Source of the DNA: Methylobacterium sp. FF17
GTDB taxonomy: Bacteria > Pseudomonadota > Alphaproteobacteria > Rhizobiales > Beijerinckiaceae
DNA length: 64,000 nt
Assembly: GCF_025813715.1 (NCBI RefSeq)
Contig: NZ_CP107532.1
Location: 1,116,001-1,180,000, forward strand
Reading direction: 5' to 3'
Made by a program: the position numbers and the translations under genes. Below, piece by piece: positions 11,728-57,809 of this stretch (position 1 is the stretch's first letter; every line of letters starts with the position of its first letter). The notes beneath the pieces were generated by a model. That model did no database searches and was not told the DNA's origin. It saw only the letters and a program-made list of their open reading frames with translations.

Positions 11728-13149
11728 TCACTCGGCGGGCCTCTGGCGGCGGCGCTCGCGCTTCTGGCCCTCGGGAGCGACGGCGTCCGCCTTGGTGGCG
11801 TCGGGCTTGGCGCCCTCCGTCACCGGCGCGGCGGCGGGCATCGCCTGGGCCTCGGCCGGGGCGCCGTCCCGACGCGGGGCCGGGACGGCCTTGCCGCCGG
11901 CCTCGGTGACGCGCACGCTGGCACCGTCCCGAAGCCGGTCGGTGCCGTCCACGACCACGCGGTCACCCGGCTGCAGGCCCTCGAGCACCACCGTCCGGGC
12001 GCCGTCGGCCTCCCCGAGCTTGATCGGGCGAACCACCACCTTGTCGTCGCCCTGCATCAAGTAGACGTAGGTGCCGGGCGTGCCGCGCAGGATCGCCGCC
12101 GTCGGGACGATCGGCGCATCGCGCACCGTGTCGACGGTGAGCTTGGCGTTGACGAACTGGTTCGGGAACAGGGCGTCGTCCTGGTTCTGGAAGATCGCCC
12201 GCAGCTTCACGGTGCCGGTGGTGGTGTCGATCTGGTTGTCCACCGTGTCGAGGGTGCCGGTGGCGATGGCGTTGACGTCGCCCCGGTCGTAGGCCGTCAC
12301 CGCGAGCTTGGCGCCCGAGCGCACCCGCCGCATCACCCGGGCGACGTCGTCCTCCGGCAGGGTGAACACCACCGAGATCGGATGGAGCTGCGTCACCACC
12401 ACGATGCTGGTGGTGGCGGCGGTGACGTAGTTGCCCTGGTCGATCTGGCGTAAACCCACGCGGCCCTCCACCGGCGAGACGATGCGGGTGTAGGTGATGT
12501 TGAGGCGCTGCTGGTCGACGAGGGCCTGGTCGGCCGCCACCGTCCCCTCGTTCTGCTTCACCAGGGCGCCTTGCGTGTCGACGTTCTGCTTCGAGATCGA
12601 ATCCTGCTGGGCGAGGCGCTGGAAGCGGGCGAGGTCGAGCTTCGAGTTCTGCAGGAGCGCCTGATCGCGCATGAGCTGGCCCTGGTACTGGGCGAGCTGC
12701 GCTTCGTAGGGGCGGGAATCGATCTGGGCGAGGAAGTCGCCCTTCTTCACGGTCTGGCCCTCGCGAAAGCCGATCTCGGTGAGGTAGCCGCTGATCTGCG
12801 AGCGCACCGTGACGGTGGCGAGCGGCGTCACCGTACCGAGGCCGGCGAGCACGATCGGCACGTCGCCGGGCGTGATCGTGGCGATGCCCACCGCCTGGGG
12901 CGGCTCCGCATGCTGTCCGCCGCGCGCGCCCCTGCCCCGGCCCTGCGAGGCGGCGGTCTGGGTGTCGGCCTTCGGTGCGAGGTAGAACCGGTATCCGGCA
13001 TAGCCCGCCCCCGCCAGGATCAGGAGCAGCACGAGCCACAGCCAGCCCCGGCGGCGCCGGCGGACGGGCGGCGCGCTTCGCGTCTCGGCCGGCATCGCGT
13101 CGGGATATTCCCGCGCGGTCTCGGTTCGGATGGGCGAGGTTTCGTTCAT
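11728..13149 (-). CDS. RND efflux periplasmic membrane-fusion protein (HlyD/MdtA family)
   Basis: This adaptor links the RND permeases to the outer-membrane channel. After a short cytoplasmic N-terminus rich in Arg there is one membrane anchor, GWLWLVLLLILAGAGYAGY (about residues 34-52). A barrel-sandwich/lipoyl part (VRSQISGYLTEIGFREGQ), an alpha-hairpin and the beta-barrel part (YTRIVSPVEGRVGLRQID) follow. The C-terminus is Ala/Pro/Lys-rich and charged. The start at 13149 is chosen because the family N-terminus begins there; the frame continues upstream into pentapeptide-like sequence that is merely the translation of a 15-bp tandem repeat. It is the first gene of the four-gene efflux operon. 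Confidence 0.9.
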   Translation of the reverse strand: MNETSPIRTETAREYPDAMPAETRSAPPVRRRRRGWLWLVLLLILAGAGYAGYRFYLAPKADTQTAASQGRGRGARGGQHAEPPQAVGIATITPGDVPIVLAGLGTVTPLATVTVRSQISGYLTEIGFREGQTVKKGDFLAQIDSRPYEAQLAQYQGQLMRDQALLQNSKLDLARFQRLAQQDSISKQNVDTQGALVKQNEGTVAADQALVDQQRLNITYTRIVSPVEGRVGLRQIDQGNYVTAATTSIVVVTQLHPISVVFTLPEDDVARVMRRVRSGAKLAVTAYDRGDVNAIATGTLDTVDNQIDTTTGTVKLRAIFQNQDDALFPNQFVNAKLTVDTVRDAPIVPTAAILRGTPGTYVYLMQGDDKVVVRPIKLGEADGARTVVLEGLQPGDRVVVDGTDRLRDGASVRVTEAGGKAVPAPRRDGAPAEAQAMPAAAPVTEGAKPDATKADAVAPEGQKRERRRQRPAE

Positions 13150-13160
13150 GGCCTGACGAT

Positions 13161-13235
13161 CTTGTCGTTCCGGATCATGGCGTTCGCGAACTTGGCATTC
13201 GGGATCTTGGCAATCGGGATCTTGGCGTGTCGGGA
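13161..13235. repeat. 15-bp tandem repeat array upstream of the efflux operon
   Basis: Five adjacent 15-bp units read on the plus strand CTTGTCGTTCCGGAT, CATGGCGTTCGCGAA, CTTGGCATTCGGGAT, CTTGGCAATCGGGAT and CTTGGCGTGTCGGGA. In the orientation of the efflux operon the consensus is ATCCCGAATGCCAAG. The array abuts the start codon of the fusion-protein gene, whose ATG lies in a further degenerate unit. Unit 2 supplies an upstream ATG (13178) opening a 10-codon reading frame whose TGA overlaps the real start. Confidence 0.85.
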
Positions 13236-13390
13236 ACGGCGTGACGAGCCGGCGGTCAGCGGGCAAGCCCCGGCGTTCCACCTTCGAGACATTCCAGATA
13301 AGGCCGTTGGCGACGGAGCGACAGCGTCGAACGGGGTCGCACCCCCAGATCTCGACAGGTCCGTATGCCCGATCCCGCCCGTTCAGGGTT

Positions 13391-13450
13391 TGCAGGATCA
13401 GAACTTGTAGGTTCGAAGCTTGCCAAACCCGGCCTTGCCGGGCCTGGGCT
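13391..13450. repeat. degenerate 15-bp periodic repeat block
   Basis: On the minus strand the tetramer CAAG (once CAAA) recurs at exact 15-bp spacing in the units CAAGGCCGGGTTTGG, CAAGCTTCGAACCTA, CAAGTTCTGATCCTG and CAAACCC. The CAAGTTC core matches unit 3 of the array at 13161-13235, so this looks like an older, diverged array of the same family. Confidence 0.55.
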
Positions 13451-13639
13451 CCGCGTCGCCGTTGCGGCGCGGCAAGACCTCGTCAGGCAAAGGCTCACGC
13501 GGTTGAGGATTGGCAGCATGGGCGCTTCCTGAAGGACCAATGCGTCTCCAGTGGGGCCTTCGGGTTTCCCCCGTGTTGCTGGCCCGCGCGCCTGCGGAAA
13601 CCTTGGACCGCCGGGCGAAATCCTGTGGAGCGGGCACGA

Positions 13640-13675
13640 AAAAGGCCGCCGCCTGGGGGGGAGCGACGGCCTTTT
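13640..13675. terminator. Rho-independent terminator-like hairpin
   Basis: A 9-bp stem AAAAGGCCG (13640-13648) pairs with CGGCCTTTT (13667-13675) around an 18-nt loop. Read on the minus strand it ends in TTTTT, the better terminator direction. It stands between two divergently transcribed genes, so neither annotated neighbour ends here. Confidence 0.55.
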
Positions 13676-13956
13676 CAGGAACGGACCGGAGCGGTGACAC
13701 GTCGAGTACGGAACGAGGGGGCGAAGTCCCGCGCTGGCAATCACCGCTCCAGCCGTGAGATGACCGTGCCGTGATGGCTGATGATTGTCAATAATCGTCA
13801 GTCGACATCGCCGCCCGACTGGGAAGCCGCGTGCGGGGACGCACATTTCGTTGCCGGATGGGGCCGTGCTAGGCCACGCCGTCAGGAGCCTCGGCGTCCT
13901 CCCCACCTCCATCGCTTCCCCGTCACGCCCTTCCGCGTCATGAATTCTGTCCCAGC

Positions 13957-15111
13957 ATGAATCCTGTCCTCGCCGACCTGCCGACGACCATCTTCACGGT
14001 GATGTCGGGCCTCGCCCGAGAACTCGGTGCGATCAATCTCGGCCAGGGCTTCCCCGACGATCCGGGACCGGAGGACGTGCGCCGTCGGGCCGCCGAGGCG
14101 GTGCTGCACGGCGACAACCAGTACCCGCCGATGATGGGGCTGCCGACCCTGCGCTCGGCAATCGCGGCGCATTACGCGCATCACCAGGGCCTCGACCTCG
14201 ACCCGATGGCGGAGGTGATGGTCACCTCGGGCGCCACCGAAGCCATCGCGGCAGCCCTGTTCGCCCTGATCGCGCCGGGGGACGAGGTGGTGCTGTTCGC
14301 CCCCCTCTACGACGCCTACCTCCCGCTGGTGCGTCGCGCCGGGGGCGTGGCCCGCATCGTGCCCCTGCAGCCCCCGCATTTCCGCCTCGACGCGTCGGCG
14401 CTTGCCGAGGCCTTCTCCGACCGGACGAAGCTCGTCGTCCTCAACAACCCGCTCAATCCCAGCGCCACGGTGTTCGGGCGGGAGGACCTGGCCCTACTGG
14501 CGGGGTTCTGCACCCGACACGACGTGGTGGCGGTCTGCGACGAGGTCTGGGAGCACATCGTGTTCGACGGCGCGCGGCACTGCCCGCTGATGGCCCTGCC
14601 GGGCATGCGCGCCCGCACCGTCAAGATCGGCTCGGCCGGCAAGATCTTCGGGCTGACGGGCTGGAAGGTCGGCTTCGTGATGGCGGCCCCGCCCCTGCTG
14701 CGGGTGGTGGCCAACGCGCACCAGTTCCTCACCTTCACGACGCCGCCCGCCCTGCAGGAGGCGGTGGCCTACGGTCTCGCAAAGGAGGACGGCTACTTCG
14801 ACGGGATGCGGGCGCGTCTGGCCGCCTCCCGAGACCGCCTGACGGCGGGCCTGAGCGAGCGGGGCTTCCGGGTGCTGCCCTCCCATGGCACCTACTTCCT
14901 CAACGTCGACCTCGCGCCGCTCGGCTGGACCGACGACGTCGCCTTCTGCGACGCGCTGGTGCGCCGGCACGGAGTCGCGGCGATTCCCGTCAGCGCATTC
15001 TATCCCGACGCCGCGGTGCGCCACATCGTCCGGCTGTGCTTCGCCAAGGCCGATCCCGTCCTCGATGCGGCCCTCGACCGGCTTGCCTCCGTCGCCGGGG
15101 AGCGGGCCTGA
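13957..15111 (+). CDS. PLP-dependent class I/II aminotransferase
   Basis: The 384-residue protein is a fold-type I aminotransferase. It has GQGFPDDPGP near the N-terminus, the cofactor-binding region VTSGATEAIAAAL (about 88-100), NNPLNPSATV, and the PLP-binding lysine in KIGSAGKIFGLTGWKVGF (about 230). The closest well-known groups are YbdL/kynurenine-type (methionine or kynurenine transaminases) and DapC-like succinyldiaminopimelate aminotransferases; motifs alone do not decide. It stands alone on its strand apart from the DUF4112 gene 123 bp downstream. The ATG at 13957 gives the usual family N-terminus and length. Confidence 0.9.
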   Translation: MNPVLADLPTTIFTVMSGLARELGAINLGQGFPDDPGPEDVRRRAAEAVLHGDNQYPPMMGLPTLRSAIAAHYAHHQGLDLDPMAEVMVTSGATEAIAAALFALIAPGDEVVLFAPLYDAYLPLVRRAGGVARIVPLQPPHFRLDASALAEAFSDRTKLVVLNNPLNPSATVFGREDLALLAGFCTRHDVVAVCDEVWEHIVFDGARHCPLMALPGMRARTVKIGSAGKIFGLTGWKVGFVMAAPPLLRVVANAHQFLTFTTPPALQEAVAYGLAKEDGYFDGMRARLAASRDRLTAGLSERGFRVLPSHGTYFLNVDLAPLGWTDDVAFCDALVRRHGVAAIPVSAFYPDAAVRHIVRLCFAKADPVLDAALDRLASVAGERA

Positions 15112-15122
15112 TGCGCGGGATC

Positions 15123-15174
15123 CAGCAGGTCGCGCCTGCGCGCGGCACGGTCGAACAGGTCGCGCTTGCGCGCA
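15123..15174. repeat. imperfect 30-bp direct repeat
   Basis: GCAGGTCGCGCCTGCGCGC and ACAGGTCGCGCTTGCGCGC recur 30 bp apart between the aminotransferase and the DUF4112 gene. Each half contains an internal GCGC-rich inverted element, so a small hairpin is also possible. Confidence 0.5.
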
Positions 15175-15234
15175 GTTGGGGCCGGGGCCACATCCTCGCC
15201 CATGACAACGCCGCGCATCCCCCGGAGCCCGCAG

Positions 15235-15675
15235 ATGGACTTCACCCAATCCGCCGGTGCCACGACCCGCTTCAAGCCGAAGGCGGACGACCGGGAGGCG
15301 ACGCTGCTGCGCCTGGAGGCGTTCGCGCACCTCATGGATTCGGCCTTCGTGATCCCGGGGATCAACCGCCGGGTGGGCCTCGACGCCCTGGTCGGCCTCG
15401 TGCCGGTGGTGGGGGATGTCGCCGGCATGCTGCTGGCCTCCTACATCGTGGTGGAGGCGCGCCGGCTCGGGGCCCCGCGCTGGCTGATCGCCCGGATGGC
15501 GATGAACATCGCCGCCGACGGGGCGCTCGGCGCCGTCCCCCTGGCGGGCGACCTGTTCGATGCGGCCTTCAAGGCCAACCGCCGCAACGTGCGCCTGCTG
15601 CGGCGCCACCTCGAGCGCCATGGCGGCCTGCGGCCCAACGAGATCGAAGGAACGGCCACCCGCATCGACGGCTGA
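15235..15675 (+). CDS. DUF4112 family small membrane protein
   Basis: The 146-residue protein matches the DUF4112 pattern: a helical N-terminus (LLRLEAFAHLMDSAF), then PGINRRVGLDALVGLVPVVGDVAGMLLASYIV, which forms the first hydrophobic hairpin, and ADGALGAVPLAGDLFDAAFKANRRN near the C-terminus. Function is unknown for the family. The ATG at 15235 follows CCGGAG at good spacing and gives the family's usual start; an in-frame ATG at 15202 would add 11 residues. The permease gene begins 1 bp after its stop, so the two may be co-translated. Confidence 0.85.
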   Translation: MDFTQSAGATTRFKPKADDREATLLRLEAFAHLMDSAFVIPGINRRVGLDALVGLVPVVGDVAGMLLASYIVVEARRLGAPRWLIARMAMNIAADGALGAVPLAGDLFDAAFKANRRNVRLLRRHLERHGGLRPNEIEGTATRIDG

Positions 15676-15676
15676 C

Positions 15677-16831
15677 ATGCGGGATGGGGGGCGCCCGGTG
15701 AACGAGGTCGTGCGCCCCGACGCCACGCCGGCCGTCGCCCTGCCCCCGCCCACGCGCGGGCTCTCGCCGCTGAACCGGCGGCGGCTCGCCAATTTCCGGC
15801 GCAACCGCCTCGGCTACTGGTCCTTCCTGATCTTCACCGGGCTCTTCGTCACGAGCCTGTTCGCCGAATTCATCGCCAACGACCGGCCCCTCGTGGTCTC
15901 GTACAAGGGCGAGATCCTGTTTCCGGTCGTCATCGACTATCCGGACGAGAAGTTCGGCGGCTTCTACGCGCGTCCGGACTACCGCTCGGCGGAGACGCGC
16001 AAGGAGATCGCCGAGCACGGCTGGGCGATCTGGCCGCCGATCCCCTATTCCTACGCCACCATCATCCAGGGCCTGCCGACCCCCTCCCCCTCCCCGCCGA
16101 CCTGGATGCTGACCGAGGCGCAGTGCCAGTCCGTCGGAAAGCCGTGCTCCGAACTCGAGACGCACTGGCTCGGCACCGACAACACCACCCGCGACGTGCT
16201 CGCCCGCATCATCTACGGCTTTCGCATCTCGGTGCTATTCGGGCTGATCCTCGCCCTGGTCTCCTCGGTGATCGGGGTGATCGCGGGGGCGGTCCAGGGC
16301 TATTTCGGCGGCTGGGTCGACCTCGCGCTGCAGCGCTTCATCGAGGTCTGGAGCGGGATCCCGACCCTCTACCTCATCATCATCATCTCGGCCTTCATCG
16401 AGCCGGGCTTCTTCGTCCTGCTGGGAATCCTGCTGCTGTTCTCGTGGGTGTCGCTGGTGGGCGTGGTGCGGGCCGAGTTCCTGCGGGCGCGCAACTTCGA
16501 ATACGTGCGGGCCGCCCGCGCCCTCGGGCTGTCGAACATCCGCATCATGAGCCGCCACCTCCTGCCCAACGCGATGGTGGCGACGCTGACCTTCCTGCCC
16601 TTCATCCTGAACGGCTCGATCGGGACGCTGACCTCCCTCGACTTCCTCGGCTTCGGCCTGCCCCCCGGATCCGCGTCCCTCGGCGAGCTGCTGGCCCAGG
16701 GCAAGGACAACATCCAGGCGCCCTGGCTCGGGCTCACGGGCTTCTTCGTGGTCGCCGTGATGCTGAGCCTGCTGGTGTTTTCCGGAGAAGCGGTGCGCGA
16801 CGCCTTCGATCCGCGCAAATCCTTCCGCTGA
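15677..16831 (+). CDS. peptide ABC transporter permease, YejE-like
   Basis: This is an inner-membrane permease of a microcin C/oligopeptide-type ABC importer. The N-terminus RRLANFRRNRLGYWSFLIF is the OppC_N segment. A long YejE-type periplasmic loop follows (NDRPLVVSYKGEILFPV, then GGFYARPDYR). The BPD_transp_1 domain contains LGTDNTTRDVLARIIYG and the cytoplasmic EAA loop VRAARALGLSNIRIMSRHLL. The normal partners (YejA binding protein, YejB permease, YejF ATPase) are not next to it, which is unusual because they normally form one operon. A GTG at 15698 is an alternative start. The 384-residue length fits the family. Confidence 0.88.
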   Translation: MRDGGRPVNEVVRPDATPAVALPPPTRGLSPLNRRRLANFRRNRLGYWSFLIFTGLFVTSLFAEFIANDRPLVVSYKGEILFPVVIDYPDEKFGGFYARPDYRSAETRKEIAEHGWAIWPPIPYSYATIIQGLPTPSPSPPTWMLTEAQCQSVGKPCSELETHWLGTDNTTRDVLARIIYGFRISVLFGLILALVSSVIGVIAGAVQGYFGGWVDLALQRFIEVWSGIPTLYLIIIISAFIEPGFFVLLGILLLFSWVSLVGVVRAEFLRARNFEYVRAARALGLSNIRIMSRHLLPNAMVATLTFLPFILNGSIGTLTSLDFLGFGLPPGSASLGELLAQGKDNIQAPWLGLTGFFVVAVMLSLLVFSGEAVRDAFDPRKSFR

Positions 16832-16861
16832 CGGGCGCCGTCACCTCACGGACCCCGATTC

Positions 16862-17197
16862 TCAGAGCGGGCGCGGGCCGCCCTCGAGGAGCCAGCCCTT
16901 CGCCCGCAGCAGCAGGGCCGGCCGGACGCGGGCGACATCCTCGTCGTCCACGAGCGGCGAGGTCGAGAGCGCGGCGAGATAGGCCTGCTCGCTGGGACGG
17001 CAGGTCCGCAGCGCCGCATCCGCCGCGATCACCCGGCTGGACAGGGCGGCCTGCAGGGCGAAGTTGCGATGCAGGCAGGCGCGCCAGGCGCCATGGCGAT
17101 CGGCCACGCCGGGCCGGTCCTCGGCCTGGGCGAGGGGGGCGGACAGGATCACGCAGAGCAGGGTGAGCGCCGGCAGGGCGCGGTCGCGGATCGTCAT
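16862..17197 (-). CDS. small secreted protein of unknown function
   Basis: The 111-residue protein opens with a clear signal peptide (MTIRDRALPALTLLCVILSA, cleavage likely after PLAQA). The mature part has two Cys residues (WRACLHRNFA and LRTCRPSEQ) that could form a disulphide, and repeated Ala/Leu-rich helices. I do not recognise a family. It is transcribed away from the BTLCP protease gene's 3' end, 149 bp apart and on the same strand, and converges with the YejE-like gene. Confidence 0.65.
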   Translation of the reverse strand: MTIRDRALPALTLLCVILSAPLAQAEDRPGVADRHGAWRACLHRNFALQAALSSRVIAADAALRTCRPSEQAYLAALSTSPLVDDEDVARVRPALLLRAKGWLLEGGPRPL

Positions 17198-17346
17198 GGC
17201 GAGGCTTTCCCGAACCCGGCCACCCTCGCGCCGCCACGCTTAACCCATGATGAAAGGCTTGGATTGTCCCCAGTCCCGTTTCGGGACGCTTTTCCACGCA
17301 GCGCTCTCAACCCACCCTCGTGAGCGGTCAGTCGGGCCGAACGGCT

Positions 17347-18000
17347 TCAGCGGTTCGCGGTGGTGGCCGGCGAGGCGGCCCGGCCGAGGGAGACCCAGCC
17401 GACGGCGTTCTGGCTCTCGCGCTTGATGAAGGTGTAGCCGGTCTGGCGCCAGGGCAGGACGGCACTGGTCTTGTTGTCGAGGATGATGTCGCCGCGATCG
17501 GTGATCAGGGTAAGCACCGCATGGCCTTCGCCCTTCTCGTCGATCACGACCGTCATCCGCATGGCCCGGCGCGACAGGCCGGCCTCGGCCAGGAGCTTGC
17601 GCTTCACGAGCTGGAAGTCCTCGCAATCGCCCGAGCCGTCCTCGGCGAGGTCCCAGCGGTCCGGCACGTGCAGGTGATCCATGTCGGTCACCGCCTGGAT
17701 GGACCGGTTCACCCGCCGGTTGACCGAGACGATGGTGGCCCAGGTCGCCGCGGTCAGGGTGATCTGGGCGGGCGCCGCCACATCCACCGCGCATTCCGCC
17801 GCGTAGCCCTGGCAGAAATCCACCCAGGCGGCGATCGGCCGGGCCGGGGCACCGGTGCTGACGGCGCTCGACACGGTCGGCAGCGCGGCGAGGGTCTGTG
17901 CCTGCGCCGAAGGGGCGAGGACGAGCCCGGCGACCAGGGCGACGCCCATCAGGGTCTTCGCTGTCAGGGCCTGGAGACGCCGGGAAAACACGTACCGCAT
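17347..18000 (-). CDS. bacterial transglutaminase-like cysteine proteinase (BTLCP)
   Basis: The 217-residue exported protein has a signal peptide (MRYVFSRRLQALTAKTLMGV to SAQAQ). The catalytic triad of BTLCP proteins is visible: Cys in GSGDCEDFQLVKRKLL, His in GEGHAVLTL and Asp in IILDNKT, with IVSVNRRVNRSI ahead of it. These periplasmic proteases are typified by LapG, which cleaves large adhesins, but the related DUF920 group in rhizobia has no known substrate; no LapA/LapD-like gene is in the window. The start at 18000 follows GAGGCGGTC, and the upstream 80 bp are AT-rich (TTAAC boxes), consistent with a promoter. Confidence 0.87.
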   Translation of the reverse strand: MRYVFSRRLQALTAKTLMGVALVAGLVLAPSAQAQTLAALPTVSSAVSTGAPARPIAAWVDFCQGYAAECAVDVAAPAQITLTAATWATIVSVNRRVNRSIQAVTDMDHLHVPDRWDLAEDGSGDCEDFQLVKRKLLAEAGLSRRAMRMTVVIDEKGEGHAVLTLITDRGDIILDNKTSAVLPWRQTGYTFIKRESQNAVGWVSLGRAASPATTANR

Positions 18001-18696: not shown

Positions 18697-18744
18697 CGGC
18701 CGTGGGGGTGGGACGTCGCGCCGGGCGTGACGTCCCACGCCGGA

Positions 18745-24110: not shown

Positions 24111-24189
24111 TCGTCGGGATCCCGATGAGAACCGCCCGATGAGAATCGCGCGGGCCTCCGTGCCCGGTCGACGCGCAAGGAAGAACGCC

Positions 24190-24789
24190 ATGATGAAGAC
24201 GCTGCTCACCGGCCTGACCCTCGGCCTCGTCGTCGCGACGGCCCCGGCCCGCGCCGACGACATCGTGCGCTACCGGGGCACCATCGAGGCCATCGACGGC
24301 TCGACCCTGACGATCAAGCCCCGCACCGGCGAGGCGAAGACCGTGACCTTCGGGAGCGACACCAAGATCCTGGCCGCCAGCAGCGGCCAGATCTCGGACA
24401 TCAAGTCCGAGAGCTACATCGGCACCGCCGCGATCCCGCAGCCCGACGGCACCCAGAAGGCCCTGCAGGTGACGGTGTTCGCCTCCTCCCTGCGCGGCAC
24501 CGCCGACGGGCACTACCCGTGGGATCTCGGCGCGAACTCCACCATGACCAACGGCGCCATCGGCAGCCTGTCGGGCACGGAGGGCCGCACCCTCCTGGTC
24601 AAGTACAACGGCGGCGAGAAGAAGGTGTTGGTGCCCGAGGACGTGCCGGTGACCCTGGTCGATCCCGGCGAGAAGAGCATCGTGGTGGCCGGCGCCAAGG
24701 TCGTGGCCTTCACCAAGGCCGGTCCCGACGGCAAGCTCAACGCCGCAATCCTCATCGTCGGCCGCAACGGCACCGTCCCGTCGATGTGA
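24190..24789 (+). CDS. exported protein with beta-rich repeat domain, paralogue 2
   Basis: This 199-residue protein (signal peptide MMKTLLTGLTLGLVVATAPA) is a tandem paralogue of the preceding gene. The two share RGTIEA(V/I)DG, the SYIGTAA(T/I)PQ block, DGHYPWDL, the T-M-T-N-G-A(V/I)G segment and a C-terminal NGTVP(P/S)M. The start ATG at 24190 has AAGGAAG seven bases ahead. The duplication is old enough to have many substitutions yet keeps identical blocks, so both copies are probably functional. It is 69 bp upstream of the cytochrome b gene. Confidence 0.72.
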   Translation: MMKTLLTGLTLGLVVATAPARADDIVRYRGTIEAIDGSTLTIKPRTGEAKTVTFGSDTKILAASSGQISDIKSESYIGTAAIPQPDGTQKALQVTVFASSLRGTADGHYPWDLGANSTMTNGAIGSLSGTEGRTLLVKYNGGEKKVLVPEDVPVTLVDPGEKSIVVAGAKVVAFTKAGPDGKLNAAILIVGRNGTVPSM

Positions 24790-26742: not shown

Positions 26743-26746
26743 GGCG

Positions 26747-32104: not shown

Positions 32105-32210
32105 GGCCGAAACGCGACCGGGCACGATCCGAGCTGGTCAGCCGTTGCCGCCGCCCGTAAATCTGGTGCGATTCCAAAGAGACGACGACGCTGCCCCGAT
32201 CTTCGACGCG

Positions 32211-32255
32211 TACCTCCGAGATTCCGGCCTCCAAGATTCCGGCCTCCAAGATTTC
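32211..32255 (+). repeat. 15-bp tandem repeat before the histidine kinase
   Basis: Three 15-bp units read TACCTCCGAGATTCC, GGCCTCCAAGATTCC and GGCCTCCAAGATTTC, followed by a more diverged TGCTTCGTGGTGGAA. The core CCAAGATTCC matches the CCAAGATCCC core of the array at 13161-13235 in the same orientation relative to the downstream gene. The units are in frame with the kinase and would encode repeated Ile-Pro-Ala-Ser-Lys. Confidence 0.85.
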
Positions 32256-32337
32256 TGCTTCGTGGTGGAAGGGCTGGCAGGCCGTCCACGCGACCGAACG
32301 CCTGCGCGCGCGCATCTGGCTCGGCGAGGCCGCCGCC

Positions 32338-33270
32338 GTGGCCGCCTCGGCCCTGGCCCTGGCCCTGCGCTTCGCCCTCGACGACGTGCTGCCGCCGGGC
32401 TTTCCCTACCTGACCTTCTTCCCGGCCGTGATCCTCACGACCTTCTTCTTCGGCCTGCGCCCCGGCATCACCTGCGCGATTCTGAGCGGGCTCGCCGCCT
32501 GGTACTTCTTCATCCCGCCGGCCAGCGCCTTCCTCATCGACGGGCCGACCGCGCTGGCCCTGGCCTTCTACGCCTTCATCGTCACGGTCGACATCGCGCT
32601 GATCCACATCATGCACCGGGCGGGCGAGCGCCTGCGCACCGAGCAGGCGGTGACGGCGGGGCTCTACGAGCAGCAGCGCACCATGTTCCAGGAGCTGCAG
32701 CACCGGGTCGCCAACAACATGCAGTTCGTGGCCGCCCTGCTCACCCTGCAGAAGCGCAAGGTCGGGGACGACCCGAAGGCGGCGCTGACCGCCCTCGACG
32801 AGGCGCGGGTGCGGCTGGAGACGATCTCCCGCATCCACCGCCGCCTCTACGACCCGAGCAGCATCGAGGCCCCCGTCGGCCAGTACCTGAAGGAACTCTG
32901 CGCCGACCTCCTCGACGCCACGGGCGCGCAGAACATCGTCTGCCTCGTGGACATGCCCCCGGTGCGCCTCGACCTCACCCGACTGACCACCCTGTCGCTC
33001 CTCGTGGTCGAGGTGGTCACCAACGCCCTCAAGCACGCCTTCCCGGCGGGTGGGCGGGGCACCATCACGATCCAGATCGAACGGATCGACGCGGAGCGGC
33101 TCCGGCTCACCATCGCGGATGACGGACGCGGCATGCCGGTGGATTTCGACCCCGGCACCACGCGCAGCCTCGGCTTTCGCATCGCGCAGGGGCTGGCCGG
33201 ACAGTTGGGCGGGCAGCTCGCCTACAGCAACGAGGGCGGTACCGTGGTCCGCCTCGCCTTCCAGGCCTGA
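32338..33270 (+). CDS. HisKA_2/HWE-type sensor histidine kinase with DUF4118 membrane domain
   Basis: From a GTG at 32338 this encodes 310 residues: a DUF4118 (KdpD-like) block of transmembrane helices (RFALDDVLPPGFPYLTFFP), the phospho-acceptor region FQELQHRVANNMQFVAALLTL (His near residue 122), and an ATPase domain (LVVEVVTNALKHAFPAGG, ADDGRGMPVDF, GFRIAQGLAGQLGG). The frame is clearly coding before this GTG: ERLRARIWLGEAAAV completes the first membrane helix, and coding character extends to about 32248, where an in-frame AAG occupies the place a start codon would have. No ATG, GTG or TTG occurs between the stop at 32160 and 32338, so the true start is unresolved. No response regulator is adjacent. 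Confidence 0.82.
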   Translation: MAASALALALRFALDDVLPPGFPYLTFFPAVILTTFFFGLRPGITCAILSGLAAWYFFIPPASAFLIDGPTALALAFYAFIVTVDIALIHIMHRAGERLRTEQAVTAGLYEQQRTMFQELQHRVANNMQFVAALLTLQKRKVGDDPKAALTALDEARVRLETISRIHRRLYDPSSIEAPVGQYLKELCADLLDATGAQNIVCLVDMPPVRLDLTRLTTLSLLVVEVVTNALKHAFPAGGRGTITIQIERIDAERLRLTIADDGRGMPVDFDPGTTRSLGFRIAQGLAGQLGGQLAYSNEGGTVVRLAFQA

Positions 33271-50528: not shown

Positions 50529-50585
50529 CGGGCGGGCCGCCGGGCGTCGGAGACGAGGCCCGGCGGCGCGAAGCCGCCGGACGCC

Positions 50586-52115: not shown

Positions 52116-52173
52116 GATCGGACGGGATACGCTTTCGAACTTCGGGTAGAGGGGCGCGGCGGCCGGGGTGCCG

Positions 52174-53580
52174 TCAGGCTTCGGCCAGGGCCACCGCGCG
52201 CATCGGCGGCAGGTTGGTGCGCAGTTCGCGGCTCACCGCGCCGGAGGCGGCGACGGTGCCGAGATTGGCATAGGTCTCGTGGTTCTTCTCGATGGCGGAC
52301 AGGTCGTAGAGGTAGTTGACCATCAGCCCGCGCGACTGGGCGAGCCCCTTGCCCGAGACGTCGCCGAGGAAGTTCAGGCGCTCCAGACGGGCGCCGTTGC
52401 CGAGGTGGAAGCGGGCCACCGGATCGAGGGGCCGTCCGCGCTCGTTCTTGGCGCGCAGGAAATAGGCCGCCGCCGCCGGGATCATCGCCTTGCGCACGGC
52501 CTCGCACCGGGCCTTGTCGGCGTGCCAGTCCGGCTCGTCGATGGCGCGCAGCGCCTCGACATCCTCGCGGGTCAATCCCTGCGGCGCGTCGGAGCGGCGC
52601 TCGCGGTCGAGCCAGGCCGAGAAGCCTGGCACCGGCGAGAGGGTGACGAAGGTCTTCAGGCTCGGGATCTCGCGGGCGAGATCCTCCACCACCTGCTTGA
52701 TCAGGAAGTTGCCGAAGGTGACGCCGGCCAGGCCCTTCTGGCAGTTCGAGATCGAGTAGAAGATCGCCGTGGTGGCGGCCTTCAGGGGCAGCGGCTGGCG
52801 CTCGTGGGCCAGGATCGGCGCGATGGCCGGGGCGATGCCGTCGGTGAGCGCCACCTCCACGAAGATCAGCGGCTCGTCCACCAGGGCGGGGTGGAAGAAG
52901 GCGAAGCAGCGCCGGTCGGTGGGTTCGATGCGCCGGCGCAGGTCGTCCCAGCCCGTGATCGCGTGCACCGCCTCGTAGCGGATGATCTTCTCGAGGATAT
53001 GGGCCGGCGTCGTCCAGTCGATGTGGCGCAGCACCAGGAAGCCCCGGTTGAACCAGGAGGCGAACAGGTGCTCGAAATCGCTGTCCAGGCTGTCGGCGGC
53101 GTCGATGAGGTCGGGGTCGGCCTCCTCGCGGCGCAGGTCCCGGCGCAGGGTGAACAGGTCCTCGCGCATCCGCACTAGGGCGCGGGTGCCGTCGCGGGCG
53201 AGGTTCAGGCGGCGGATGAGTTCCTGGCTGCGCGGCTCGGCGGCGTCGTGGAGCGCGCTCAGGGCCGCCCGGGTCGGGTCGGCCCGGTAGGCCGCGATGG
53301 CCTCGTCCACGGCGGCATGGTCGGCGGAGAACTCGGTGGCCACGAGGCGCAGGAAGCCGCCGCGCTCGGCCGGGCCGAGGGTGGCGTAGCGTTCGAGGAT
53401 CAGGCGGGCCAGGGCGACGCCGGAGGCCTCGCCGCGCCGGGAGATCAGGTCCTCGCAGAGCTTGACGAGTTCCGGCGCGGTGGCACGGGCGCCGAGTTCG
53501 CCCCGCCCGATCCCGATGAGGTCCCGGCCCCGGTCGCTGATGGTCTGGAGCAGATCGCCGAAGAAAGAGATCGCCGCCAT
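52174..53580 (-). CDS. malonyl-CoA decarboxylase
   Basis: The 468-residue enzyme converts malonyl-CoA to acetyl-CoA and CO2 (MatA/MCD family). Helical N-terminal and GNAT-like catalytic domains are visible, with SNCQKGLAGVTFGNFLIKQV, KTFVTLSPVPGFSAWL (probable active-site Ser region) and VARFHLGNGARLERLNFLGD (probable catalytic His region). It is the first gene of the mcd-matB pair. No dedicated malonate carrier (MatC) or regulator (MatR) is adjacent; a major-facilitator transporter lies about 1 kb away on the other strand. Confidence 0.93.
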   Translation of the reverse strand: MAAISFFGDLLQTISDRGRDLIGIGRGELGARATAPELVKLCEDLISRRGEASGVALARLILERYATLGPAERGGFLRLVATEFSADHAAVDEAIAAYRADPTRAALSALHDAAEPRSQELIRRLNLARDGTRALVRMREDLFTLRRDLRREEADPDLIDAADSLDSDFEHLFASWFNRGFLVLRHIDWTTPAHILEKIIRYEAVHAITGWDDLRRRIEPTDRRCFAFFHPALVDEPLIFVEVALTDGIAPAIAPILAHERQPLPLKAATTAIFYSISNCQKGLAGVTFGNFLIKQVVEDLAREIPSLKTFVTLSPVPGFSAWLDRERRSDAPQGLTREDVEALRAIDEPDWHADKARCEAVRKAMIPAAAAYFLRAKNERGRPLDPVARFHLGNGARLERLNFLGDVSGKGLAQSRGLMVNYLYDLSAIEKNHETYANLGTVAASGAVSRELRTNLPPMRAVALAEA

Positions 53581-53606
53581 GTCACGCCGCCTGACCCTTC
53601 ACTGAC

Positions 53607-53662
53607 GCCCGGCTCGGGCGGACCCAAACCCTCCGCCCGGCTCGGGCGAATCCAAACGCCGC
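53607..53662. repeat. 28-bp tandem repeat, two copies
   Basis: Two 28-bp units both begin GCCCGGCTCGGGCG and share CCAAAC at the same spot; a third partial GCCCGGCTGGGC follows at 53671. It lies just upstream of the malonyl-CoA decarboxylase start. Confidence 0.65.
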
Positions 53663-53770
53663 GCATGCGCGCCCGGCTGGGCCATTCGTTGGCTTGGCCG
53701 TCACTTTAGGGCGGGAGCGCCCTGAGGGCCAGAGCCGGAACCGAAGAGCCGAACCGCCGGGTCGCGGGAA

Positions 53771-53866
53771 AGGGATCAGCCCGGCTCGCTGGTTGGGGTG
53801 AAAGGGGTCAGCTCGGCTCGCCGGGCCGCACGAAAGGGATCAGCCCAATTCGCCGGGCCCGGACGC
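53771..53866. repeat. 32-bp tandem repeat overlapping a gene end, three copies
   Basis: Three 32-bp units begin AGGGATCAGCCCGGCTCGCT, AGGGGTCAGCTCGGCTCGCC and AGGGATCAGCCCAATTCGCC. The third contains the stop codon of the small gene ending at 53840, and the other two carry the TCA (minus-strand TGA) in the same register, so the stop codon has been duplicated downstream. Confidence 0.75.
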
Positions 53867-54043
53867 GATCTCGGCCCGGTCCGCCCGTTCGCGCCAATCC
53901 TCGACGCCGTGCAGGCGGGCGAAGCGCAGTTCGGCCGCGCGCAGCGCCCGCATGGGGTCGCGGGCGCGGGTGATGTCCACCGACCCGACCGTGAACGGGA
54001 CGCCGAGGATCTGCTTGGCAAAGTTGACGCGATAGGTCGCCAT
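53840..54043 (-). CDS. small conserved-looking hypothetical protein
   Basis: The 67-residue protein begins MATYRVNFAKQILGVPFTVG and contains ITRARDPMRALRAAELRFAR, a pattern of short strands and one basic helix that looks like a small folded domain. No family is recognised by eye. Its 3' end is covered by a 32-bp tandem repeat. Evidence rests on composition and on a start at 54043 in an otherwise empty gap. Confidence 0.6.
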   Translation of the reverse strand: MATYRVNFAKQILGVPFTVGSVDITRARDPMRALRAAELRFARLHGVEDWRERADRAEIASGPGELG

Positions 54044-54538
54044 CCGAAACTCCCTGGCCGATGCGGCGGGCTTCGCGCAGGAGGGCCCGTCACGCCCCGC
54101 GAATCCGGCGACTCATCGGTGCCGGCCGCGATCAAAGCGCAGAATGCGAAGAATTCCAAGCACCGTCGCTGTGAAAGCCGGCCAACTCCGTAGTCGCCGC
54201 TAACACGCGGTATATGGCGACCTTGAAATCGCTCGCAATGGCCGCCGCGACGACATGCCCGCACGGGTCGAGCCAAGACAAACCTCGCCCCTGAGCAAGA
54301 TGAGCACGGCAATCGACGGGCCGGGAACGCCGGTGCGGCGTCCTGCCCGGCCATCGCGAAGGTCGTATCCGGGTTGCCGAAGCCGCCGCACGCGCTTAAC
54401 CGACCGGGTCATGCCGTCCAGTCCCTCCTATTCTCTCGCGGCGCCCGCGCCGCAGACGTGCGAGCTCCCTCCGATGACCGTCGCATCCGATCCGGAATTC
54501 CTTCCGTCCCCGCGTCCCGCCCCGGCGGGCCGCCGCGC
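54044..54538. other. intergenic region before the transporter
   Basis: About 500 bp separate the small minus-strand gene from the plus-strand transporter. There is a moderately AT-rich spot near 54150-54240 (GCAGAATGCGAAGAATTCC). I see no repeats, terminators or convincing gene; an alternative upstream start of the transporter frame (54374) is not family-like. Confidence 0.45.
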
Positions 54539-55726
54539 ATGAGCGGCGTGGACGGGACGGCCGCCCCGGCGCACGGCTTCACCCCCAGGGCGCGCTTCGG
54601 CCTCACCCTGATCGCGGGCGGCGCGGTCGCCAACATCTACTACAACCAGCCCCTGCTGGCGCTGCTGGTGGGCGAGTTCGGCGAGCGGGCGGCGCTCTGG
54701 GTGCCGACTGCCTCCCTCATCGGCTACGGCCTCGGCATCCTCGGCCTGGTGCCGCTCGGCGACAGCCTGTCCCGCCGCAGCCTGATCATCGGCCAGACCC
54801 TGGGTCTCGCGGTGGCGCTCCTGGCGGCGGCGCTGAGCCCGACGCTGACGACGCTGGTGCTCGCCAGCCTCGTCATCGGCGTCCTGGCCTCGGCGGCGCA
54901 GCAGGCGGTGCCCTTCGCCGCCGAACTCGCGCCCGATGCCAGCCGGGGCAGCATGGTCGGCCAGGTCATGACCGGGCTCCTCACCGGCATCCTGCTGGCG
55001 CGGACGGCCAGCGGCCTCGTCGGCGCGCAGTACGGCTGGCGCGCCGTGTTCTTCGCCGCCAGCGCCGTGGCGGTCGGCATGGCGGCCGTCGCCGCCGCCA
55101 CCCTACCGGGCCCGGCGCAGACGCGGCCCCTGCGCTACCGCGCGCTGATGCTGTCGATCCTCCACCTCGTTCGCACGCAGCCCGCCCTGCGCCGCGCCAG
55201 CCTCTCGCAGGGCCTGCTGTTCGGCAGCTTCAACGCCTTCTGGGCGACCCTCGCGCTGCTGGTGGAGGCGCCGCCCTTCGACCTCACCGCCGCCGGCGCC
55301 GGGCTCTTCGGGGTGATCGGCGTCGCGGGCGCCTGCGTCGCGCCGCTGTCCGGGCGCTTCACCGACCGCCACGGCGCCCGCCCGATGGTGGTGATCGGCG
55401 CCGGGCTGGTGGTCGCCTCCTTCGCGGTGCTCTGGATCGGCGGCACCTGGTCCCTGGTGGCGGTGGGTCTCGGCGTCCTGCTCATCGATATCGGGCTGAA
55501 CGCCGCCCTCATCGCCAACCAGACCCGGGTCTACGCCCTGGTGCCGAGCGCGCGGGGGCGGATCAACACGGTGCTGTTCACGGTGATGTTCGTGTTCGGG
55601 GCGCTCGGGGCCTTCGCGGGTTCGCAGGCCTTCCTGGTCGCGGGCTGGTCCGGGGTCTGCGCGGTGGGCATCGCGCTCGCGGGCGCGGGCTTCCTCGTCA
55701 ACGTGCTGGAGCCCCGCGCGGCCTGA
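54539..55726 (+). CDS. major facilitator superfamily transporter
   Basis: The 395-residue protein has twelve predicted helices. The N-terminus FGLTLIAGGAVANIYYNQPLLALL and LIGYGLGILGLVPLGDSLSRRSLII are typical of the YnfM/DHA1-like transporters with no assigned substrate. The start at 54539 (MSGVDG) is chosen because the open frame upstream lacks hydrophobic character. It converges with cobC (6 bp between stops) and lies near the malonate genes, so malonate transport is a possible but unsupported idea. Confidence 0.82.
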   Translation: MSGVDGTAAPAHGFTPRARFGLTLIAGGAVANIYYNQPLLALLVGEFGERAALWVPTASLIGYGLGILGLVPLGDSLSRRSLIIGQTLGLAVALLAAALSPTLTTLVLASLVIGVLASAAQQAVPFAAELAPDASRGSMVGQVMTGLLTGILLARTASGLVGAQYGWRAVFFAASAVAVGMAAVAAATLPGPAQTRPLRYRALMLSILHLVRTQPALRRASLSQGLLFGSFNAFWATLALLVEAPPFDLTAAGAGLFGVIGVAGACVAPLSGRFTDRHGARPMVVIGAGLVVASFAVLWIGGTWSLVAVGLGVLLIDIGLNAALIANQTRVYALVPSARGRINTVLFTVMFVFGALGAFAGSQAFLVAGWSGVCAVGIALAGAGFLVNVLEPRAA

Positions 55727-55732
55727 CGCCCC

Positions 55733-56749
55733 TCACTTCAGGACGCGCGACAGGCGGCACCATTCGCCCCGGTCCGCCGGCAGGCCGAAGCGCAGGCGCC
55801 GGGGTGCGTCCGAAAAGCGGCGGACATAGATCCCGGCCCCGCCGAGGCGCGCGAACAGGTCCGGCCCGTCCGGGAAATCGGCGGTGCGGAACAGGCGGGT
55901 GCCGCCGACCACCGCGCCGCCGGCCCGGACGATCATCCGGTCGAGGCGCGCGGCGTCCCGCCCCCGCGCGGCGACGGCCGATCGGCGCCAGGCGTCGTCC
56001 GAGAGGGCGGCGCGGCCGATCGCCAGGGCCGGGCCGGACACCGCCCAGGGCCCCAGCGCCCGCGCGATCGCGGCGACGAGACCGGGCTCGCCGAGGGCGA
56101 AGCCGAGCCGGATGCCCGCGAGCCCGTAGGTCTTGCCGAAGGAGCGCAGGACCACGAGGCCGGGGCGCGGGCTGCCGGCCAGCGTCGCGACGGGTTCGAG
56201 GTCGGCGAAGGCCTCGTCCACCACGAGGAGCCCGCCCCGCCCCGCGAGTTCGGCGGCGAGCGCCAGCAGGGTCGCGGCCTCCCAGCTCCGCCCGTCCGGG
56301 TTGTTGGGGTTCACCACCACGGCGACATCGGCGCCCCCGATCCGGGCCATCTCCGGCACGGTCTCGACGGCGTGGCCCGCGCGGGCCCAGGCCGCCGCGT
56401 GCTCGGCATAGGTCGGCCCCAGCACGGCGACGCGGCCCGGCGGCCTCAGGCGCGGCAGGGTCTCGATCAGGATCTGGGTTCCGGGCGCCGCCGCGATGCC
56501 GTCCGGGTCGGGCGCGCCGTAGGCCCCGGCCGCCGCCCGCCGCAGCGCCGCGAGGTCGGCCGCCGAGGGCAGGCGACGCAAGGCGCTGGCCTCCAGGGCC
56601 GGACACGGATAGGGCACCGGGTTGATCCCCGTGGAGAGATCGACCCAGGGCTCGGGCGCCCCGGGGAACAGGCGCCGCGCGGCATCGAGGTCGCCCCCGT
56701 GGTCGATGGCCCCGCCCGTCGCCGGTTCCCCCGGGCCCCGCGCCCTCAC
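55733..56749 (-). CDS. cobC: threonine-phosphate decarboxylase-like PLP enzyme of cobalamin synthesis
   Basis: The 338-residue PLP enzyme supplies the aminopropanol phosphate arm of cobalamin (CobC/CobD-type). It has HGGDLDAARRLFPGAPEP and DLSTGINPVPYP, the classical N-terminus of the family, NPNNPDG, and the PLP lysine in VLRSFGKTYGLAGIRLGF. The start is a GTG at 56749; no ATG lies closer. It is divergent from cobD, and the 39 bp between the starts are made of a 15-bp repeat, so the promoters of the two genes overlap. Confidence 0.9.
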   Translation of the reverse strand: MRARGPGEPATGGAIDHGGDLDAARRLFPGAPEPWVDLSTGINPVPYPCPALEASALRRLPSAADLAALRRAAAGAYGAPDPDGIAAAPGTQILIETLPRLRPPGRVAVLGPTYAEHAAAWARAGHAVETVPEMARIGGADVAVVVNPNNPDGRSWEAATLLALAAELAGRGGLLVVDEAFADLEPVATLAGSPRPGLVVLRSFGKTYGLAGIRLGFALGEPGLVAAIARALGPWAVSGPALAIGRAALSDDAWRRSAVAARGRDAARLDRMIVRAGGAVVGGTRLFRTADFPDGPDLFARLGGAGIYVRRFSDAPRRLRFGLPADRGEWCRLSRVLK

Positions 56750-56754
56750 CGAGA

Positions 56755-56799
56755 CGTCATGTATCAAGACGCCATGTACCGAGACGTCATGCCCTGGAC
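56755..56799 (+). repeat. 15-bp tandem repeat carrying three copies of the cobD start codon
   Basis: Units CGTCATGTATCAAGA, CGCCATGTACCGAGA and CGTCATGCCCTGGAC follow one another at exact 15-bp spacing. Each contains an in-frame ATG (56759, 56774, 56789). The pattern C-A-T/A-G with CC downstream matches units of the arrays at 13161 and 57780. Confidence 0.85.
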
Positions 56800-57790
56800 C
56801 GCCCTCACCCATCCGCCCGATACGCTCATCGTCCTGGTGCTGGCCCTCGCCGCAGAGGCGGCGGCCGGCTATCCGGACCGGCTCTACAGGGCGCTCGGCC
56901 ACCCTGTCACCTGGATCGGCGCGCTGACCGGCGGGCTCGACCGGCGCCTGAACCGGGGGAACGACGCGCAGCGCCGGATCGCCGGGCTCCTCGGCCTCGG
57001 GATCCTGCTCGCTTGCGTCGGCGGCGTCGCCCTGGCGCTCACCGCGCTCGCGGGCGCGGCCGGGGCGGTCCCGGCCCTCGGCCTCCTCGCCCTGCTCTGC
57101 GCCAGCCTGCCGGCCCAGCGCAGCCTGCACGACCACGTCGCCCGCGTCGCCACGGACCTGCGCCGCGACGGGCTGGCGGGCGGACGGATCGCGGTCTCGA
57201 TGATCGTCGGGCGCGACCCCGAGAGCCTGGACGAGGCCGGGATCTGCCGCGCCGCCATCGAGAGCCTCTCCGAGAACTTCTCCGACGGGATCGTGGCGCC
57301 GGCCTTCTGGATCGGGGCCGGCGGGCTGCCCGGCGGCGCGCTCTACAAGGCGATCAACACCGCCGACAGCATGATCGGCCACCGCACGCCGCGCCACGAA
57401 GCCTATGGCTGGGCCGCCGCCCGCCTCGACGACCTTGTGAACCTGCCGGCCTCGCGGCTGACCGCCCTCCTCCTCGTGGCGGCCGCCGCGCTCCATCGCG
57501 GGGCCTCGCCCGGGGCGGCGTGGCGGGCGGTCCGGCGCGATGCGCGCCACCACCGCTCGCCCAATGCGGGCTGGCCGGAGGCCGCCATAGCCGGGGCGCT
57601 GGGCCTGCGGCTCGCCGGTCCGCGCGTCTATGGCGCCACCCGCGTCGCGGATGGCTGGATGGGCGACGGCCGCGCCGAGGCGACGCCCGCCGACGTGGAG
57701 CGGGCGCTGGCGCTCTACCGGACGGCCTGCGCGCTCCTGTTCGGCCTCGCCCTCGCGCTCCTGGCCCTCCTCACCCTGGTGTTCGCATGA
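56789..57790 (+). CDS. cobD: adenosylcobinamide-phosphate synthase
   Basis: The 333-residue membrane protein (CbiB/CobD) attaches aminopropanol phosphate to adenosylcobyric acid. It shows GYPDRLYRALGHPVTWIGAL, a ARVATDLRRDGLAGGRIAVSMIVGRD segment with the family's GRD, and NFSDGIVAPAFWIGAGGLPG and INTADSMIGHRTPRHEAYGW, which are diagnostic. Three in-frame ATGs (56759, 56774, 56789) are equally poor in ribosome-binding sites because of the 15-bp repeat; 56789 gives the conventional N-terminus. The next gene overlaps the stop by ATGA. Confidence 0.92.
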   Translation: MPWTALTHPPDTLIVLVLALAAEAAAGYPDRLYRALGHPVTWIGALTGGLDRRLNRGNDAQRRIAGLLGLGILLACVGGVALALTALAGAAGAVPALGLLALLCASLPAQRSLHDHVARVATDLRRDGLAGGRIAVSMIVGRDPESLDEAGICRAAIESLSENFSDGIVAPAFWIGAGGLPGGALYKAINTADSMIGHRTPRHEAYGWAAARLDDLVNLPASRLTALLLVAAAALHRGASPGAAWRAVRRDARHHRSPNAGWPEAAIAGALGLRLAGPRVYGATRVADGWMGDGRAEATPADVERALALYRTACALLFGLALALLALLTLVFA

Positions 57791-57809
57791 TCCCGGTTCG
57801 CATGATCCG
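57780..57809 (+). repeat. 15-bp duplication containing the start codon of the secreted-protein gene
   Basis: TGTTCGCATGATCCC and GGTTCGCATGATCCG stand side by side. Each has an ATG (57787 and 57802) in the same frame, so the gene has two start codons one unit apart. The CATGATCC core also occurs in unit 2 of the array at 13161-13235 (read on the minus strand). Confidence 0.85.

What the first reader, a model, noticed from the sequence alone, without database searches (positions are those of the whole stretch)
13146..57809. A family of 15-bp tandem repeats seated at gene starts
At 13161-13235, 13391-13450, 32211-32255, 56755-56799 and 57780-57809 there are short arrays with a 15-bp period. Aligned in the orientation of the downstream gene they share a core CA(A/T)GATYCC-like sequence (CCAAGATCCC, CCAAGATTCC, CCATGTACC, GCATGATCC). 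At 56755 and 57780, and in degenerate form at 13149, the gene's own ATG falls on the A(T/A)G of a unit. Because 15 is a multiple of 3, unit gain or loss keeps the frame while changing N-terminal length and the distance to the ribosome-binding site. I know of no described element of this kind.
Basis: partly seen in the sequence, partly recalled or inferred. Interest (0 to 1): 0.72.

Follow-up and report, generated by a model that had tools for sequence, protein, structure and literature searches.

The report
Repeated start codons before Methylobacterium genes
In Methylobacterium, short DNA stretches holding a gene's start signal are sometimes copied head to tail, and most of the copied starts examined at gene starts are arranged so that a ribosome entering at any of them could still reach the gene; this is a little-noticed way for gene starts to change during evolution.

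Summary
Partly confirmed. Four of the five arrays are real; 13391-13450 is chance-like. They are not a sequence family: what they share is position. In 1.66 Mb of this genome, 15 bp is the commonest tandem period at gene starts (15 arrays; every other period from 8 to 30 has 0-7), with largely unrelated units.

The genus is Methylobacterium. Its non-coding and start-zone DNA holds about 3.3 times more 10-24-bp tandem arrays than other alphaproteobacteria.

Where units carry the start codon, reading phase matters. Periods of 12, 15 or 18 keep starts in frame. In periods of 14 and 17 the unit usually carries ATGA: each start opens a 5-6 codon ORF whose UGA overlaps the next AUG (88 of 88 steps in 26 14-bp arrays). 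One array outside that set, L023, breaks the rule. Three ATGAs spaced 14, 17 or 16 bp occur in 74, 39 and 13 of 99 genomes. Copy number differs between species.

Best reading: frequent short tandem duplication filtered by translation. Tuning of expression is possible, untested. Ten library searches found no description.

The parts
13158..13235 (-). 15-bp array, about 5 units (GCCAAGATCCCGAAT on the gene strand), 8 nt upstream of the ATG (13149) of a HlyD-type membrane-fusion protein gene (11728-13149, -). ATGs at 13198 and 13178 form a two-step AUGA relay into the gene's ATGA.
   Evidence: Pfam
13939..13969 (+). 17-bp duplication CATGAATTCTGTCCCAG / CATGAATCCTGTCC at the called start (13957) of an aminotransferase gene. 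The ATG at 13940 opens MNSVPA-stop, whose TGA overlaps the gene's ATG: a one-step AUGA relay.
   Evidence: Pfam
24121..24149 (+). 14-bp duplication CCCGATGAGAACCG. The ATG at 24125 opens MRTAR-stop, whose TGA overlaps the ATG at 24139; that ATG is in frame with the called start at 24190 (protein without a Pfam match).
32213..32253 (+). 15-bp array, 2.7 units (CCTCCAAGATTCCGG), 85 nt before the called GTG (32338) of a DUF4118/HisKA_2 histidine kinase gene; open in the kinase frame but with no ATG, GTG or TTG in the units.
56748..56799 (+). 15-bp array at the start of the CobD/CbiB gene: ATGs at 56759, 56774 and 56789, all in frame. Methylobacterium sp. Leaf117 has one unit there.
   Evidence: Pfam
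57781..57808 (+). 15-bp duplication at the start of the DUF3616 gene that follows cobD: in-frame ATGs at 57787 and 57802; the cobD stop TGA overlaps the first ATG (ATGA). Leaf117 (L153) and Leaf112 (L159) have no 15-bp duplication there (best 15-mer identity at lag 15: 7 and 8, against 13 in the window).
   Evidence: Pfam
13391..13450 (.).
   Evidence: absent

Best explanation
These are lineage-specific short tandem duplications (unit about 12-20 bp) that happened to include, or lie beside, a translation start. Methylobacterium forms or keeps such duplications in non-coding DNA more often than other alphaproteobacteria (shown as density; the cause is inferred). Copies that carry the start codon persist when they leave translation of the gene intact. 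Units of 12, 15 or 18 nt keep every AUG in frame, so the protein gains an M-x-x-x-x type N-terminal repeat. Units of 14 or 17 nt carrying AUGA make a chain of 5- or 6-codon ORFs, each ending in a UGA that overlaps the next AUG, so a ribosome could reach the gene by termination-reinitiation. Units of 16 nt usually let a ribosome run out of frame past the gene start and are rare at starts. The arrangement is shown from sequence. That ribosomes use the extra starts, and that selection removed the other phases, is inferred.
For: Start-zone period counts in the own sample: 15 arrays of period 15, against 5, 5, 3 and 3 for periods 14, 16, 12 and 18, 7 for period 30, and 0-3 for the rest. With a second version of the gene caller: 12, against 4, 5, 3 and 3. 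The 13-mer around a start recurs (10 of 13 or better) at +15 in 7 of 1358 starts, at most 3 at any other offset. Array density: 28.0 per 100 kb (94 arrays) in own and 27.3 (63) in other Methylobacterium, against 8.3 (19) in other alphaproteobacteria (p = 8e-8 and 1e-6). Relatives without the copies: CobD in Leaf117 has one unit; dapB has no array at its start in the 13 other genomes whose start my script located, of 29 other loci returned, while the own dapB has four SD-spacer-ATG units (Pfam). Reading-phase rule: 43 of 63 listed 14-bp places fetched; 26 have the gene start in register; all 88 ATGs after the first carry A as 4th base and all 88 steps end in a TGA overlapping the next ATG; base rate of A 427 of 1120. 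14-bp arrays classified: 23 of 29 ATGA-type and 0 of 10 others in register, p = 1e-5. 16-bp: 1 in register and 1 near of 17. Three-ATGA patterns: 74, 13 and 39 of 99 genomes at 14, 16 and 17 bp. Upstream ATGs in unbiased arrays run on out of frame less often than other upstream ATGs (5 of 33 against 406 of 1164, p = 0.02, though ATGs of one array are not independent). Copy-number change: one glycosyltransferase start has 0 to about 10 start-copy units in different genomes; orthologous relay pairs differ.
Against: Exceptions: L023 (own genome, 14 bp) is in register but ATGC-type, and by my reading one of its starts runs on; the 16-bp arrays L351, L360, L077 and L043 sit at starts. In the unbiased pooled sample arrays overlapping starts are few (periods 14-18: 4, 5, 1, 2, 3), so there period 15 hardly exceeds 14; the 15-bp excess comes mainly from arrays just upstream or just inside. 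G019 has no array overlapping a start in 400 kb. ATGA itself is not enriched in array units overall (11 against 9.4 expected). The ATG patterns bias what was found, my first batch of fetched 14-bp places favoured ATGA units, 19 listed places were not read, and starts come from my own gene caller.
Confidence: 0.7

Rival explanations
1. The arrays are adaptive tuning devices. The number of units sets how many ribosomes reach the gene (several in-frame starts, or a lossy AUGA relay), and slippage changes the number, as in contingency loci.
For: Copy number differs between relatives at the same start. Of four glycosyltransferase orthologues not chosen for an array, three carry start-copy units (two further ones, L235 and L246, were chosen because they had arrays). 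8 of 26 14-bp and 5 of 16 17-bp arrays begin exactly at the upstream gene's stop. Overlapping gene pairs were strictly coupled in 13 of 14 cases tested in H. volcanii and E. coli (PMC6728339, abstract).
Against: No expression data. By my rough estimate (12 start-overlapping arrays of period 12-20 and 43 in other intergenic DNA of the own sample), density at starts is close to that of other intergenic DNA, so no excess needs a benefit to explain it. ATGA is not enriched in units overall. No strain-level variation could be tested.
Confidence: 0.2
2. A true dispersed sequence family (core CAWGATYCC or similar) recognised by a protein or spread by copying.
For: Three of the window's units share 9-10 of 15 positions, and CAWGATYCC is denser near starts. 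CAAG is over-represented in units in two samples. The own-genome pattern search gave 12 places against 3 for the reversed pattern, though several of the 12 lie in the same two window arrays.
Against: Most other own arrays near starts have unrelated units. Orthologous genes in relatives lack the unit or carry a different one. Where relatives could be compared, units are copies of the local start region.
Confidence: 0.07
3. Gene-start miscalls: the arrays are ordinary amino-acid repeats inside coding sequence or random intergenic repeats, and the start association is an artefact.
For: Starts come from my own caller. Many ATG-spaced hits are Met-rich coding repeats.
Against: For 14-bp arrays only every third ATG is in the gene's frame, so the register is not a free choice among starts. 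The ATGA rule (88 of 88) has no coding explanation. In coding DNA the periods 12, 15, 18 and 21 are of similar number (30, 42, 37, 33), in start zones they are not (3, 15, 3, 2).
Confidence: 0.08

Closest known systems
Four-nucleotide ATGA gene overlaps with termination-reinitiation (PMC6728339 and PMC10666635, abstracts and section lists seen)
   Same: Same ATGA stop/start overlap; some arrays begin at a real operon junction.
   Different: Here the overlap is repeated head to tail and the ORFs between are 5-6 codons, not genes.
TAACTGA heptamer repeats just upstream of start codons in marine Beggiatoaceae (PMC4679880, abstract and passages seen)
   Same: Tandem repeats close to many starts, no clear functional class of genes, a translational role proposed.
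   Different: One fixed 7-nt sequence mostly upstream of the start; here the sequence differs per gene, the unit is 12-18 nt and often contains the start codon.
Contingency loci / VNTRs at gene starts (phase variation; recalled)
   Same: Tandem units at gene starts with copy number differing between lineages.
   Different: Classical loci switch genes by frameshift; these arrays are arranged so that the gene stays readable.
Minigene (two-codon ORF) in the axe-txe operon (PMC8708949, abstract seen)
   Same: A very short ORF upstream of a bacterial gene.
   Different: Single element, not a tandem chain with overlapping stop and start.
Engineered tandem translation initiation sites in Bacillus (PMC10821235, passages seen)
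   Same: Several start codons in series before one gene.
   Different: Synthetic; the natural arrays arise by duplication. No benefit in titre was reported there.

Membership tests
ATGA-coupled gene pairs (termination-reinitiation) | Stop codon overlaps the next start by 4 nt | tested here: met
   88 of 88 steps in 26 14-bp arrays; 35 of 36 at 17 bp, but ATGA was part of that search pattern
ATGA-coupled gene pairs (termination-reinitiation) | Both partners are protein-coding genes | tested here: not met
   Upstream partners are 5-6 codon ORFs; the first overlap is a called gene end in only 8 of 26 and 5 of 16
ATGA-coupled gene pairs (termination-reinitiation) | Translation experimentally coupled | not testable with these tools
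   needs reporters
Contingency locus / phase-variable repeat | Tandem units with copy number differing between lineages | tested here: met
   (between species)
Contingency locus / phase-variable repeat | Variation within a strain or population | not testable with these tools
   one genome per species held
Contingency locus / phase-variable repeat | Switching by frameshift of the gene | tested here: not met
   units are in frame or relay into the gene; exceptions L023 and some 16-bp arrays
   pairs with 9 or more of 15: 27 of 136 against about 13.7 expected; only three of the window's four units alike
TAACTGA-type start-proximal repeats | Fixed heptamer upstream of the start | tested here: not met
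   unit sequence and length differ from array to array

The most novel reading that the evidence does not exclude
Methylobacterium carries a class of evolvable translational rheostat: tandem arrays of AUGA-overlapped micro-ORFs (14 or 17 nt) that pass ribosomes to the gene step by step, so that gain or loss of one unit changes expression by a set factor without touching the protein, alongside 15-nt multi-start arrays that change the N-terminus.
Probability: 0.2. Interest if true: 0.82.

Novelty: new variant of a known kind. Interest (0 to 1): 0.6.

Why it matters
It shows a recurrent way in which bacterial gene starts change: the start codon and its surroundings are copied in tandem, and the surviving copies largely obey reading phase. 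That gives natural test series (0 to about 10 units at one gene) for multi-start initiation and for chained termination-reinitiation. It also warns that start-site annotation in this genus is ambiguous, and it points to a raised density of short tandem duplications as a genus trait whose cause can be sought.

Tried and rejected
A common core as the defining element was rejected. Mobile-element copies: rejected, because in the cases compared units are copies of the local start region and relatives lack them. Counts of 4xATG at 15 and 18 bp over 99 genomes (96 and 99 genomes with hits) were not used as evidence, because Met-rich coding repeats make up many of the listed rows and the lists are cut; the reversed-pattern control is weak for the same reason. 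The ATG-fate test on the unbiased sample points the expected way but is weak. Of 30 dapB loci my script located the start in 14, the own included; in 8 it printed a wrong place and in 8 it found none. A protein search in a wrong frame was repeated in frame. Searches failed through my own errors; one search was an idle script. In one search I searched one strand only; one search repeats it on both strands. Promoter scans, RNA folding and structure prediction were not run.
Full report
WHAT WAS CHECKED. The window is G000:C1:1116001-1180000 of a 5.99-Mb genome. The genus is Methylobacterium: the best CobD loci in named genomes are Methylobacterium sp. Leaf117 (88% identity in the best segment), Leaf112 and W2. 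TRF finds 13158-13235, 32213-32253 and 56748-56791; my scan adds 57781-57808. The stretch 13391-13450 has 25/45 lag-15 matches, a level expected about 6.6 times in this window, and is set aside.

IS PERIOD 15 AT STARTS REAL? I fetched 80 stretches of 20 kb (a roughly even grid; one stretch, L081, was moved on purpose to hold a pattern hit and contributed none of the arrays) plus the window, 1.664 Mb in all, and called genes with a simple codon model (1426 genes). In the zone -60 to +30 of called starts, tandem segments by period were: 12:3, 13:0, 14:5, 15:15, 16:5, 17:3, 18:3, 30:7, the other periods 0-3. Per 100 kb, period 15 is 12.2 in start zones, 1.2 in other intergenic DNA and 3.2 in coding DNA, where 12, 18 and 21 have 2.3, 2.9 and 2.5. 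A second version of the caller gave 12 for period 15. The 13-mer around a start recurs at +15 in 7 of 1358 starts, no other offset exceeding 3. Counting only arrays that overlap the start codon itself, the pooled Methylobacterium sample (2.77 Mb) gives 4, 5, 1, 2 and 3 for periods 14-18, so the 15-bp excess lies mostly just upstream or just inside.

NOT ONE FAMILY. The arrays near starts have largely unrelated units. Examples are four units of GTGAGGCCGGACATG type at dapB (L039:13811; Pfam DapB), four of ATGCRAGGAACGCCC type (L039:8739) and ATGCCTTCYCCYGCC (L073:17192). A mild word bias exists: CAAG in 25 of 94 own units against 10.6 expected, and in 13 of 63 against 6.6 in other Methylobacterium. 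Pairs of own units are somewhat more alike than shuffles: 27 of 136 pairs reach 9 or more of 15, about 13.7 expected.

LINEAGE-SPECIFIC COPIES OF THE LOCAL START. Leaf117 has one ACCGAGACGCCATG before cobD where the window has three units. dapB has no array at its start in the 13 other genomes whose start my script located (of 29 other loci returned); by eye, two of them (G003, G058) carry short repeats farther upstream; the own genome has four SD-spacer-ATG units. A glycosyltransferase gene (named) read as DNA in six genomes shows start-copy units in five: about 10 units of 15 nt in L235, three in Methylobacterium frigidaeris (L246), five degenerate ones in L323, one in L325, two of 12 nt in L326; L324 shows none. 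L235 and L246 were fetched because they had arrays, so the fair count is three of four. Among protein records, N-termini of 2 (M. currus), 3 (M. frigidaeris) and 4 (P0003, P0004) pentads occur. In all six, a GGGAG lies shortly before the first ATG (my reading).

OTHER PERIODS. Arrays of 14, 16 and 17 bp also carry start codons, so frame-keeping is not the whole rule. Over 99 genus genomes, four ATGs at 14-bp spacing occur in 44 and at 16 bp in 26. I counted by hand 63 distinct 14-bp places and read 43, plus one, L023, in the own sample. My first batch favoured ATGA units; the last batch took most of the rest. In one search, 39 of the 43 passed the array threshold: ATGA-type, 23 of 29 with the called gene start in register and 1 near; other types, 0 of 10 in register and 1 near (p = 1e-5). 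The strand with the gene start was preferred in that table. 16-bp arrays: 17 read, 1 in register, 1 near, and 3 near a gene start on the other strand. 15-bp arrays: of 18 picked by eye, 16 were classified: 5 in register, 2 near, 6 inside ORFs, 3 elsewhere.

THE RELAY. By pattern, 26 of the 43 14-bp loci have the gene start in register. The first ATG is followed by A in 24 of 26 and every later ATG, the gene's own included, in 88 of 88; each of the 88 micro-ORFs ends in a TGA that overlaps the next ATG. Among called ATG starts of the own sample A follows in 427 of 1120. Position 4 varies less than positions 5-14 (2 of 88 against 116 of 880, p = 0.001). Three pairs among the 26 are orthologous between species by eye, so at most 23 are independent; with the exception L023, 23 of 24 against the base rate gives p = 4e-9. 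In 8 of 26 the first ATGA is the upstream gene's stop. Orthologous pair L333/L347 differs by one unit; L338/L344 differ in unit sequence and array length; L348/L366 have the same number of units. At 17 bp, of the 30 loci that the tool cut out, 16 are in register and 3 near. Three ATGAs occur in 74 genomes at 14 bp, 39 at 17 bp and 13 at 16 bp of 99; these patterns also catch a few weak, non-repetitive matches. Non-coding arrays of 14 and 16 bp in general are of similar number (own 8 and 8; other Methylobacterium 7 and 3).

THE WINDOW. It holds both kinds: in-frame multi-starts at 56759-56789 and 57787-57802; a one-step relay at 13940-13957; a two-unit 14-bp relay at 24125-24139; and in the 13158 array a two-step relay, 13198 to 13178 to the gene's ATG at 13149, with steps of 20 and 29 nt.

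HOW WIDESPREAD. Non-coding array density is 28.0 and 27.3 per 100 kb in Methylobacterium samples against 8.3 in 64 other alphaproteobacterial loci (p below 1e-5). A 14-bp ATGA relay of four starts is found in 3 of 6 genus genomes, 0 of 6 from other genera of the family, and 11 of 285 from the rest of the order. So it is enriched in, not confined to, the genus. Within the genus it varies: G019 shows no start-overlapping array in 400 kb.

MECHANISM. Shown: position, period, phase rule, copy-number differences between species. Inferred: origin by replication slippage or another short-duplication process, loss of phases that divert ribosomes, and use of the extra starts. Termination-reinitiation at short overlaps is established for gene pairs (PMC6728339 and PMC10666635, abstracts). 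A tuning role is possible; my rough density comparison gives no large excess at starts over other intergenic DNA (counts). In the unbiased sample, array ATGs upstream of starts run on out of frame in 5 of 33 against 406 of 1164 other upstream ATGs, the expected direction but weak, because ATGs of one array are not independent.

LITERATURE. Ten searches listed no paper that I recognised as describing start-codon arrays or AUGA chains; subscription papers are mostly not held. The nearest is the TAACTGA repeat set of Beggiatoaceae.

Noticed in passing
window 58935-59008: 16-bp array, 4.6 copies (GTCAGGCCACTCGGCG), between two convergent gene ends.
   Followed up: no
window 53755-53859: 32-bp array, 3.3 copies, overlapping a weak small-gene call at 53840-54043.
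   Followed up: no
window about 11280-11730: Between two transporter-type genes, ORF translations contain LTPALSFQERER / LTPTLSVAERA-like strings that look like a dispersed non-coding repeat.
   Followed up: no
window 32161-32338: The histidine kinase frame stays open upstream of the called GTG without ATG, GTG or TTG; ATT recurs every 15 nt in frame (32221, 32236, 32251) in the array, so a non-standard or misplaced start is possible.
   Followed up: partly
non-coding DNA of own sample and other Methylobacterium loci: The word CAAG/CTTG is about twice as frequent in tandem units as in background non-coding DNA, a possible hint at the duplication mechanism.
   Followed up: partly
L358 and L360 (16-bp arrays in relatives): Units carry their own in-frame stop (ATGGCTGCCTGATCGG; ATGGGCCTCGCCTGAG), so each is a closed micro-ORF.
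   Followed up: no
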